A stretch of 64,000 bases of DNA from NCBI RefSeq assembly GCF_039542385.1, contig NZ_BAABIA010000004.1, forward strand, positions 124,001-188,000. Reading direction: 5' to 3'. The notes below the pieces were generated by a model. It was not told the DNA's origin, ran no database searches, and saw nothing but the letters and a program-made list of their open reading frames with translations. The stretch is from Prosthecobacter algae (lineage in GTDB: Bacteria > Verrucomicrobiota > Verrucomicrobiia > Verrucomicrobiales > Verrucomicrobiaceae). The position numbers were made by a program, and so were the translations under genes. The first letter of the stretch is position 1. Each line of letters begins with the position of its first letter. Shown piece after piece: positions 61,074 to 64,000 of this stretch.

Positions 61074-61493
61074 ATGTCAAAAAAACACATGGCCTTACCG
61101 AGGCAAAAGTCGGTTATTAAAAGAGCAAAGTCATTCAAGTCAAAATCTGCCGCTTCCGCTTGCGAAAAAGAGGAGGTGCCGGACTCAAATCGGAGTTTCT
61201 CATCCTACAAAGGATGGGCGACCCGCCGAGCAAATCACGAAGCGCGAGCAAATGTGCTTCGGGGTCCTGAATTTGAACTGTTTCAGTCTGTGACTGGGGA
61301 TAGTAAAGATTCCTGGATACTCTGTGAAGTCTGCCCGGGGAAATGGCTGGTCTACAGGAGCCGTTCTTCCACGAACGGTAAGGGTAGCTACCGCATTCAA
61401 TTCACAGAGGATCAATGGGATGGATTTGTTTTCGAAGGTAGTTCTTTACGATCTATTGTAGCGGCTACAATCAAATCTCAAAATATTCTGTAA
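61074..61493 (+). CDS. Unknown protein upstream of the retron
   Basis: 139 residues. The basic, Ser/Lys-rich N-terminus (KSVIKRAKSFKSKSAASA) is probably disordered and is followed by a compact alpha/beta segment (WILCEVCPGKWLVYRSRS, GSYRIQFTEDQWDGFVFEG). A strong terminator 34 bp after the stop supports a real gene. AT-richer than the core and unlike any family I know. It probably forms a two-gene unit with the preceding small ORF. Confidence 0.6.
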   Translation: MSKKHMALPRQKSVIKRAKSFKSKSAASACEKEEVPDSNRSFSSYKGWATRRANHEARANVLRGPEFELFQSVTGDSKDSWILCEVCPGKWLVYRSRSSTNGKGSYRIQFTEDQWDGFVFEGSSLRSIVAATIKSQNIL

Positions 61494-61526
61494 TGGGAGG
61501 CGATTGTTAACCGAAGAAGATTTTAG

Positions 61527-61555
61527 ACGCGAGCAGCAATGCTCGCGTTTTTTTC
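61527..61555 (+). terminator. Intrinsic terminator before the retron locus
   Basis: ACGCGAGCA/TGCTCGCGT, a 9-bp perfect stem with a GCAA tetraloop, runs directly into seven T. It separates the upstream gene from the retron transcript. Confidence 0.92.
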
Positions 61556-61677: not shown

Positions 61678-61848
61678 GGCTCCGAGAAATGCTTGAATTA
61701 CTTGTTGGGTTGTTGTTCCTGCAACCTGTTTTTACCAATGTATCTAGATTACGCTAGATGACCAGCTTATCATTATTCCGACGACTACAGCTTCCGGTTA
61801 TACGGACGACAGGTTTGCGGAAAGAAAAATTCGGTGCTTCTCGGAGTC
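61678..61848 (+). ncRNA. Putative retron msr-msd RNA
   Basis: This non-coding stretch ends 13 bp before the reverse transcriptase ATG. Its ends pair: GGCTCCGAGAA (61678-61688) with TTCTCGGAGTC (61838-61848), 11 bp with one G-U, plus a second block GAATT/AATTC (61695-61699 with 61828-61832). This is the a1/a2 layout of retrons. Inside are two stem-loops: GGGTTG/CAACCT around TTGTTCCTG (61707-61727), which resembles the UUGUUUC loop of known msr RNAs, and ATCTAG/CTAGAT (61742-61759). The segment 61762-61827 would be msd; it has TTCCG/CGGAA pairing (61776-61780 with 61818-61822). G61691 is a candidate branching guanosine. Candidate promoter elements: TTGAAA 61611-61616 and TGGAAT 61634-61639. 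Confidence 0.68.
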
Positions 61849-61861
61849 TACTATTTTCGCG

Positions 61862-63355
61862 ATGAATTTAGATAAAACTGTTGAAGCTATTTTTGTGAGA
61901 ATAGCTTCATTTGATGACTTGGCGAAAATGCTTGGGGCATCACCAAAGCAGTTACGGTTTTTGTTGTATGGATGTTCAGATTATTCAAAATATACTATCT
62001 TCAGCATAGCAAAACGAAAAGGTGGAACCCGCTTGATCAAGGCCCCTCGAGTTGAGTTGAAATGCATTCAGCGGCGCCTTGCTTCATTGATTCAAGACCG
62101 TGTTCGACCAAGGGCTTGTGCGCATGGCTTTGTGCGATCCAGAAGTGTTGTAACTAATGCACTCCTCCATGTTCGCCATCGCACAGTATTTAACATAGAT
62201 CTAAAAGACTTCTTCCCAACAATTAATTTTGGTAGAGTGCGAGGCCTTTTTATGGCAGCTCCGTTTGGTGCCCCCGAAAAGATAGCTACTGTCATAGCCC
62301 AGCTCTGTTGCCATGAAGGGGTTCTTCCTCAAGGTGCTCCTACATCACCGGTGGTTTCCAATTTGATATGCATGCGGTTAGACACTCAACTGCAAAAACT
62401 GGCTAAAAATCATAGGTGTATTTTTAGCAGGTATGCCGACGATATAACATTCTCCAGGCGTAAGGGCAACATGCCTTCCGATATCGCTAGCGAAGATGCT
62501 AATGGCGATTTTGTTGTGGGTAATGAACTCCGTCGAATTATAGATAGTAACGGTTTTTCAATCCATCCAGATAAAGTTCATCTCTATAGAAATACCACTC
62601 GCCAATCTGTTACTGGCCTTGTGGTGAATAGACGAGTTAATGTCCCTCGCGAATTTATCAGAAATATTCGCGCAATGATTTCTGACTGGCATAAGAACGG
62701 ACTGGATTCTGCAGAAAAAAGTCACCATGAGAAACACTACCGTAGAGCACTGATCGCTGGATTAAAACCACCCCTTCCGCGGATCATAGAAGGAAAATTA
62801 AATTTTTTAAGAATGGTTAAAGGCATTGACGATCCTGTGCGTCGAAATTTGCAAAGACAGTTCGTGAATGTTTATCCCGAATATCAAAAGGTTATGGAAA
62901 AAGAAAATAGTGAACTATCAATGCGTGATTTATTCATTTCGCACGCCTCTGAAGATAAGGATGCATTTGTGCGACCATTAGTTCAAGCGCTCGTTAAGGT
63001 GGGTGTAAGTGTTTGGTACGATGAAGCTGAAATGACTATCGGTGACAAGTTGACAAACAAGATTAATGAAGGCTTAACTAAATCAAGATATGGCTTGGTG
63101 GTTTTGTCCCCAAGCTTTTTTAGTGTAAAAAAAACATGGCCTGACAGAGAGGTGAATGCCCTGTTTGCTATGGAAGATGCCGATGGAAACTCTCGAGTTC
63201 TACCCCTTTGGTATAAGGTCGACAAAGAACAGGTATCAAAGACAAATCCTCTTTTAGCCGGACAATTGGCGTGGAAAGCAGCGGATTTTTCTGTAGACGT
63301 TCTGGCAGAGAAATTTCGAGACTTTATGAAAAATAGAAGATCTAAAGATGCTTGA
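61862..63355 (+). CDS. Retron reverse transcriptase fused to a TIR domain
   Basis: 497 residues. RT domain about 30-330: NIDLKDFFPTI (catalytic Asp), LPQGAPTSPVVSNL, YADD at 191-194, then VTGLVVN at 250-256. The retron hallmarks NAxxH (NALLH 99-103) and VTG (250-252) are both present. From about residue 355 a TIR domain begins (LFISHASEDKDAFVRPLVQA) with SVWYDEAEMTIGDKL and a candidate NADase glutamate E430 in KTWPDREVNALFAM. In known retron-TIR systems the RT makes msDNA that restrains a TIR effector; phage interference frees it to deplete NAD+. That function is inferred here from the family. The gene is markedly AT-rich. Confidence 0.92.
   Translation: MNLDKTVEAIFVRIASFDDLAKMLGASPKQLRFLLYGCSDYSKYTIFSIAKRKGGTRLIKAPRVELKCIQRRLASLIQDRVRPRACAHGFVRSRSVVTNALLHVRHRTVFNIDLKDFFPTINFGRVRGLFMAAPFGAPEKIATVIAQLCCHEGVLPQGAPTSPVVSNLICMRLDTQLQKLAKNHRCIFSRYADDITFSRRKGNMPSDIASEDANGDFVVGNELRRIIDSNGFSIHPDKVHLYRNTTRQSVTGLVVNRRVNVPREFIRNIRAMISDWHKNGLDSAEKSHHEKHYRRALIAGLKPPLPRIIEGKLNFLRMVKGIDDPVRRNLQRQFVNVYPEYQKVMEKENSELSMRDLFISHASEDKDAFVRPLVQALVKVGVSVWYDEAEMTIGDKLTNKINEGLTKSRYGLVVLSPSFFSVKKTWPDREVNALFAMEDADGNSRVLPLWYKVDKEQVSKTNPLLAGQLAWKAADFSVDVLAEKFRDFMKNRRSKDA

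Positions 63356-63471: not shown

Positions 63472-64000
<529 letters not shown>

What the first reader, a model, noticed from the sequence alone, without database searches (positions are those of the whole stretch)
61678..61848. Candidate msr-msd RNA with 11-bp a1/a2 repeat
The ends of a 171-nt non-coding segment just before the RT pair over 11 bp, with a second 5-bp block, and two stem-loops lie on the msr side. One has a loop similar to the UUGUUUC loop of known retrons. The likely branch G and msd boundaries can be proposed (G61691; msd about 61762-61827). The msd side lacks an obvious long perfect hairpin, which may make it unusual.
Basis: partly seen in the sequence, partly recalled or inferred. 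Interest (0 to 1): 0.75.

Follow-up and report, generated by a model that had tools for sequence, protein, structure and literature searches.

The report
RNA template of a TIR-fused retron
The segment is very probably the RNA that a bacterial anti-phage reverse transcriptase, fused to a TIR self-killing domain, copies into a small DNA; the kind of system is known, but this one sits on an unusual branch and may have gained its TIR domain separately from the known TIR retrons.

Summary
In detail: 61678-61688 pairs with 61838-61848 over 11 bp (one G-U), 13 nt before a 497-aa RT-TIR gene (61862-63355), with two msr-side stem-loops (61707-61727, 61741-61760). The repeat alone is only moderately rare (35 of 2000 shuffles). 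Comparison makes it convincing. In the RT's clade, 44 of 52 upstream regions (window included) carry such a repeat, against 11 of 1040 shuffles and 2 of 45 downstream controls. In 15 related RNAs (window not among them) 17 of 18 pairs of the two helices change on both sides. The window's first stem-loop matches those of cyanobacterial and Herpetosiphon retron RNAs.

The missing long msd hairpin is common among relatives examined; the branch G cannot be assigned. The surprise is lineage: the RT does not group with E. coli-type Retron-TIR (type XII) RTs (AU p 0.038, 0.045), its RT part scores slightly higher with type XI models, and it is below the NCBIfam Retron-TIR cutoff. Independent TIR recruitment is likely but unproven. 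Only one of three covariance models built without the window finds the RNA, weakly. msDNA and defence are inferred.

The parts
61525..61555 (+). intrinsic terminator that probably ends the upstream 139-aa gene; the retron unit probably starts after it
   Evidence: 11-pair stem plus T-run
61678..61688 (+). a1 arm of the retron RNA
   Evidence: 11 pairs with 61838-61848; R2 model match starts exactly here
61691..61699 (+). 5' side of the second a1/a2-proximal helix; holds the candidate branch Gs 61691 and 61695
   Evidence: minimum-energy fold; a similar second helix in the fold of L127 and in the consensus of the E. coli-type RNAs
61707..61727 (+). msr stem-loop SL1, loop motif UUGUUCCUG
   Evidence: same motif before the RTs of L002, L003, L006, L127, L191, L192
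61741..61760 (+). msr stem-loop SL2, 7 pairs, 6-nt loop
61762..61837 (+). approximate msd (template for msDNA); boundaries inferred; holds an imperfect hairpin 61776-61822 and a degenerate 23-nt tandem repeat
61828..61837 (+). 3' side of the second helix (U61835 bulged)
61838..61848 (+). a2 arm of the retron RNA
   Evidence: R2 match ends exactly here
61862..63355 (+). RT-TIR fusion protein, 497 aa; YADD at 62432-62443, VTG at 62609-62617
62930..63241 (+). TIR domain (Pfam TIR and TIR_2), putative catalytic Glu430 at 63149-63151
   Evidence: Pfam TIR_2 1.7e-19; aligns with the NADase AbTIR, 8g83; E430 invariant in the 5 RT-TIRs aligned, window included

Best explanation
61678-61848 is the non-coding msr-msd RNA of a retron whose reverse transcriptase is fused to a C-terminal TIR domain. 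Inferred mechanism: the transcript folds so that a1 and a2 pair; the RT binds the msr stem-loops, primes at a guanosine near a1 and copies the msd into a small branched DNA (msDNA). The RNA-DNA-RT complex keeps the fused TIR silent until a phage disturbs it. The TIR then destroys NAD+ and the infected cell dies or stops growing. Shown here: the RNA anatomy, its place, co-variation of the same helices in relatives, and the RT and TIR domains with their motifs. Inferred: transcription, msDNA, NADase activity, phage defence.
For: RT domain E 2.5e-17 and TIR_2 1.7e-19. PADLOC RT-TIR_XII 500 bits. Ec67 and Ec86 retron RTs are the best RT matches in the PDB, and a TIR domain protein and the NADase AbTIR the best TIR matches. 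Fold z -3.2. 44 of 52 clade rows, window included, have an a1/a2 repeat of score 13 or more before the RT, against 11 of 1040 shuffles and 2 of 45 downstream stretches. Across 15 related RNAs, window not included, 17 of 18 pairs show changes on both sides, 96.6% of cells paired, 0 of 500 shuffles as good. Six E. coli-type Retron-TIR RNAs have a1/a2 with compensatory changes. SL1 pattern: one site in the 6.12-Mb genome at up to 1 mismatch. The two-part descriptor (SL1 inside a helix of 10 or more pairs) hits the window once on two strands and, among loci L001-L241, only the window's own copies and six related RT loci. Model R2, built without the window, has one match in 64 kb, exactly 61678-61848.
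Against: R2's score is weak: 16.5 bits, E = 1 for the window, and in a joint search with 11 other loci it ranks just below one spurious match. Models R1 and R3 do not find the full element. The closest RT found is 51% identical over residues 20-198 only (L067) and 47-48% over the whole RT (L007), so co-variation could not be measured on close orthologues of the window's RNA. The covariation alignments A8 and A9 were fitted to the structure. Rfam gives no match. SL1 is followed, one base on, by TTTTT and scores as terminator-like. The msd has no stable DNA hairpin. No promoter-like site on the + strand. No expression or msDNA data.
Confidence: 0.9

Rival explanations
1. SL1 plus the T-run (61707-61733) is an intrinsic terminator or attenuator in the leader of the RT gene, and the a1/a2 pairing is chance.
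For: Scan calls 61706-61728 terminator-like; the repeat alone arises in 35 of 2000 shuffles.
Against: SL1 loop and stem are shared with RNAs before other RTs of the clade, where a1/a2 is present too. In the cyanobacterial, L127 and E. coli-type rows SL1 is not directly followed by a run of five T.
Confidence: 0.05
2. The RNA is real but degenerate: the retron no longer makes msDNA (weak msd fold, weak match to models).
For: msd DNA fold z +1.0; only one of three models finds it.
Against: a1/a2, second helix, SL1 and SL2 are intact and the RT-TIR frame is open with YADD, VTG and the TIR Glu. 14 of 16 relatives also lack a strong DNA hairpin by the same rough measure.
Confidence: 0.05
3. Same retron, but TIR was inherited from a common RT-TIR ancestor (an ordinary, divergent type XII), not gained separately.
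For: PADLOC type XII models score best on the whole protein. On the unrooted TIR tree the window sits between free TIRs and the other RT-TIRs, so one origin is not excluded. In the second RT tree no starred fork forces two origins. The AU p values are borderline, and I had seen the quick tree before testing.
Against: RT trees: AU p 0.038 and 0.045 against one RT-TIR clade, 0% of 200 bootstraps in both. RT part alone scores type XI 436.1 and type XII 428.4, whereas three RT-TIR controls score XII 63-70 bits above XI. NCBIfam equivalog 484.6, cutoff 600, against 657-678 for five others. TIR 46% identical to two free TIRs of the same genus (a third 41%), 34-44% to eight RT-fused TIRs.
Confidence: 0.4

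Closest known systems
Retron-TIR / PADLOC type XII RT-TIR (E. coli loci L117, L118; NCBIfam NF042941)
   Same: Single protein with retron RT and C-terminal TIR; a1/a2-bounded RNA upstream with a UUGUU-type msr loop; similar size (136-144 nt in six loci against 171).
   Different: RT not in the same clade; below the NCBIfam cutoff; SL1 and spacing differ; the E. coli-type RNA ends 208-215 nt before the RT core, here 59 nt.
Retron RNAs before cyanobacterial and Herpetosiphon RTs (L002, L003, L006, L190, L191, L192, L127)
   Same: SL1 stem-loop with UUGWUCCYG loop inside the a1/a2 helix (L190 has a variant); among the nearest RTs by path length.
   Different: No TIR by profile in these loci; L127 has a Toprim-like C-terminus (by eye), L190 and L191 are followed by a hypothetical gene and an ATPase, L192 has a 753-aa frame with unknown C-terminus; RT identity 42-44% for L127, L002, L003, L006.
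Type XI RT-protease retrons (L004, L007 and their branch)
   Same: Best PADLOC match of the RT part alone; L007 has the highest identity over the whole RT, 47-48%; RNAs of this branch found by model R2.
   Different: L004 and L007 have a trypsin-like C-terminus (by eye; no family search run on them) instead of TIR; SL1 loop differs.
Retron-Eco2 / Ec67 (type I-C, RT-Toprim; PDB 9lm3, 9i2f)
   Same: Best RT match with a solved structure, E 3.4e-58; RT fused to effector; a1/a2 and branch G per PMC12405507 (passages).
   Different: Toprim effector; Eco2 has one msr stem-loop and a 67-base msd that folds into one long hairpin (PMC12405507, passages); here two stem-loops and no long hairpin.

Membership tests
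Retron (general) | Retron-clade reverse transcriptase with YADD and VTG motifs | tested here: met
   that VTG marks retron RTs is recalled
Retron (general) | msr-msd RNA bounded by inverted repeats a1/a2 next to the RT | tested here: met
   co-variation in relatives
Retron (general) | branched msDNA with 2'-5' link at a conserved G | not testable with these tools
   candidate Gs 61691 and 61695 only; position of a G after a1 differs between branches
Retron (general) | effector fused or adjacent | tested here: met
   TIR domain fused
Retron type XII (RT-TIR), PADLOC | whole-protein match to RT-TIR_XII models | tested here: met
   500.5 and 495.7 bits, best of library
Retron type XII (RT-TIR), PADLOC | RT of the type XII clade | tested here: not met
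   AU p 0.038 and 0.045 (borderline); RT part scores type XI 8 bits higher
NCBIfam NF042941 Retron_TIR_antiphage | score at or above curated cutoff 600 | tested here: not met
   484.6 bits; L117, L118, L140, L133, L135 score 657-678, the cut-off L091 458.7
Retron type XI (RT-protease) | trypsin-like protease fused to RT | tested here: not met
   C-terminus is TIR
Rfam RNA families | match at gathering score | tested here: not met
   0 of 4227 families over the window; no retron family among 6 matches at E up to 10
TIR NADase | catalytic glutamate | tested here: met
   E430 aligned with a glutamate of AbTIR in the same WxxxE setting and invariant in the 5 RT-TIRs aligned, window included; its catalytic role is recalled
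TIR NADase | NAD+ cleavage | not testable with these tools
   needs an assay

The most novel reading that the evidence does not exclude
A retron lineage of its own that recruited a TIR domain independently of E. coli-type Retron-TIR: its RT and RNA belong near the type XI / cyanobacterial branches and its TIR derives from free AbTIR-like TIR proteins. TIR would then have been coupled to an msDNA sensor at least twice, and 'RT-TIR' would not be a single type.
Probability: 0.55. Interest if true: 0.55.

Novelty: new variant of a known kind. Interest (0 to 1): 0.45.

Why it matters
Retrons are sorted into types largely by effector. If the same effector was fused twice to different retron RT/RNA modules, effector-based typing misleads, and TIR seems easily coupled to msDNA sensing. 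The candidate RNAs listed here, for the window and for six E. coli-type Retron-TIR loci, give concrete templates to test. Whether such RNAs are already in print I cannot say: in the listings, and in the passages read of four papers, I saw none described, but the key papers (Mestre 2020, Khan 2025) were not held.

Tried and rejected
Tried without gain: Rfam. Model R1 built from five cyanobacterial RNAs: no window match, only SL1 locally at 10.2 bits, and nothing in the whole genome. Model R3 from 15 RNAs: window element not found, two weaker chance matches instead. Searches for close orthologues: among 95 relatives besides the own genome the best RT match is 42% over part of the RT; in samples of 386 other genomes of the phylum and 383 of the class no further full RT-TIR was found, only the cut-off L091 (the last at E 1e-85 or better). 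Viral contigs gave RTs of at most 48% identity to the window and none for L091; phages gave 52 records, all below 60% identity. The 21-mer of the cyanobacterial SL1 gave none.

Considered and rejected: that the TIR tree alone shows a separate origin (the window lies between the two groups, root unknown); that the window groups with the SL1-sharing RTs as one clade (not in the best tree, 0% of 200 bootstraps; AU p 0.21, so not rejected either); that the absent msd hairpin is special (2 of 17 RNAs that I chose, window included, have z below -2; the msd of the relatives was taken as about the second half of each RNA). Literature: Mestre 2020 and Khan 2025 are not held, so what they say of type XII RNAs was not checked; Gao 2020 was seen only through passages of a commentary. 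No structure was predicted.

Full report
OBSERVATION. The 171-nt segment 61678-61848 ends 13 nt before an open frame of 497 codons (61862-63355). Its ends pair over 11 bp with one G-U. The fold holds a1/a2, a 2-nt bulge, a second helix of 9 pairs, SL1 (61707-61727) and SL2 (61741-61760), and an imperfect hairpin in the msd (61776-61822); z -3.2. By itself the repeat is not rare: 35 of 2000 shuffles, and 24 repeats of equal or better score in the 64-kb window, this one included.

PROTEIN. The gene codes for an RT (Pfam RVT_1) and a C-terminal TIR (Pfam TIR_2). PADLOC calls it RT-TIR, type XII, at 500 bits; the NCBIfam Retron-TIR model gives 484.6 bits, below its cutoff of 600. In the PDB the best RT matches are retron Ec67 and Ec86, the best TIR matches a TIR domain protein and the NADase AbTIR. 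YADD, VTG and the TIR glutamate E430 are invariant among the five aligned RT-TIRs, window included.

RELATIVES. RT-TIR fusions were few. In E. coli, 99 of 5426 genomes match the L115 region somewhere and 92 over at least 80% of the query (the weakest listed hit covers 3% and is another retron). Others lie in viral contigs (L123, L124, L133, L135, L137-L140), and one is cut off at a contig end (L091).

THE RNA IS A CLADE FEATURE. In a quick tree of 143 RTs the window falls in a set of 53 (SH-aLRT 97). One of these has no upstream DNA (L091). Of the other 52, window included, 44 have an inverted repeat of score 13 or more, arms 105-200 nt apart, within 400 nt before the RT core; shuffles give 11 of 1040 and stretches 2 kb downstream 2 of 45. 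The eight that miss are L005, L007, L009, L011, L058, L116, L137, L160. For L005, L007 and L011 model R2, and for L009 and L116 model R3 (built with their near relatives), find an element just before the RT; L058, L137 and L160 stay unresolved. Six E. coli-type Retron-TIR RNAs align over a1/a2 with both-side changes at five of its pairs; 8 of 31 predicted pairs have such changes; five of the six have an SL1 loop UUGUUUCG. On 15 other related RNAs (L002, L003, L006, L190, L191, L127, L004, L193, then L005, L007, L008, L010, L011, L134, L136; window not included) 17 of 18 pairs of a1/a2 and SL1 change on both sides and 96.6% of cells pair, 0 of 500 shuffles as high. That alignment was fitted to the structure and leans towards it; L199, given to the same search, was not found and is not in it.

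THE WINDOW'S OWN ELEMENT. Its SL1, GTTG-TTGTTCCTG-CAAC, has the form of the SL1 before the RTs of L002, L003, L006 and L127; the third stem pair is T-A, T-G or C-G. A pattern drawn from these and the window also matched two of three cyanobacterial loci fetched in the same turn (L191 and L192; not L190), 9 of 236 loci in all, three of them copies of the window. In the whole genome of 6.12 Mb the pattern has one site at up to one mismatch. A two-part descriptor hits the window once and, among L001-L241, only its own copies and L002, L003, L006, L127, L191, L192; loci L242-L361 had been picked for the motif, and hits in 11 of those 120 are not a test; the two examined are 9-nt repeat arrays. Aligned to model R2, 17 of the window's 18 pairs are standard, and 10 of 18 differ on both sides from L002.

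Model tests are mixed. R1 misses the window's element. R2 has it as its single match with exact ends, 16.5 bits, E 1 in 64 kb and 0.0097 in 601 nt; in a joint search with 11 other loci it ranks below a spurious match. R3 misses it.

BRANCH G AND MSD. In the branch of Ec67-like, roughly 600-aa RTs (not typed one by one) a G directly follows a1 in 20 of 21 rows by my reading, in line with rG15 of Retron-Eco2 (PMC12405507, passages). The window has A-U-G after a1; G61691 and G61695 are both possible. The E. coli-type RNAs have no invariant G between a1 and SL1. As DNA the msd does not fold better than shuffles, and 14 of 16 relatives show no strong fold either on a rough definition of msd. It holds a degenerate tandem repeat, 17 of 23 identical, 1 of 1000 shuffles, length chosen after the fact.

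LINEAGE. The RT is not in the clade of the other 11 RT-TIRs: two careful trees on overlapping sets of 47 RTs have 0% of 200 bootstraps with one RT-TIR group and AU p 0.038 and 0.045. In the first, starred forks force two changes; in the second they do not. The group was defined by domain content, but I had seen the quick tree before testing, and the p values are borderline. The RT part alone scores RT-Protease_XI 436.1 and RT-TIR_XII 428.4, while three RT-TIR controls favour XII by 63 to 70 bits. The TIR domain is 46% identical to two free TIRs of the same genus and 41% to a third, against 34-44% to eight RT-fused ones. Of its 360 plasmid records the best 30 were listed: 27 annotated as TIR or DUF1883 proteins and three unannotated or hypothetical, none as RT. 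The TIR tree puts the window between the two groups and does not decide. Separate recruitment is therefore likely, about 0.55, not shown.

MECHANISM. By analogy with studied retrons: RNA folds, RT primes at a G near a1, copies msd, and the complex holds TIR in check until a phage disturbs it. A commentary on Gao et al. reports that msDNA synthesis and structure are needed for retron defence and lists Retron-TIR (PMC7699616, passage). In Retron-Eco2, the nearest relative with a solved structure, msDNA holds an RT-Toprim trimer together (PMC12405507, passages). None of this was tested for the window.

VERDICT. The system is a known kind in a divergent form; interest moderate.

Noticed in passing
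63472-64000 and L238:666-4632: A partial copy of thiC lies between the retron and a DpnII-type restriction gene with a second, methyltransferase-like gene (by eye), followed by the full-length thiC; this looks like R-M insertion at thiC with partial duplication, beside the retron.
   Followed up: partly
61763-61810: Degenerate 23-nt tandem repeat inside the msd, 17 of 23 identical, 1 of 1000 shuffles as good.
   Followed up: partly
61843-61846: The a2 arm contains GGAG, 15 nt before the RT start; a1/a2 pairing would hide this possible ribosome-binding site.
   Followed up: no
L117 1643-1782, L118 1501-1641, L123 2810-2949, L124 2808-2949, L139 2152-2295, L140 2137-2276: Candidate msr-msd RNAs of E. 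coli-type Retron-TIR. In L117 and L118 the RNA ends 51 and 34 nt before the annotated RT start, and these proteins carry some 50 or more N-terminal residues that the window's lacks.
   Followed up: partly
L258, L281 (viral contigs): The SL1-like 17-mer lies within 9-nt repeat arrays with no RT found in the stretch; probably repetitive sequence unrelated to retrons.
   Followed up: partly
61074-61493: 139-aa gene with no family match in Pfam, PADLOC or NCBIfam, just upstream of the retron and followed by a terminator.
   Followed up: no
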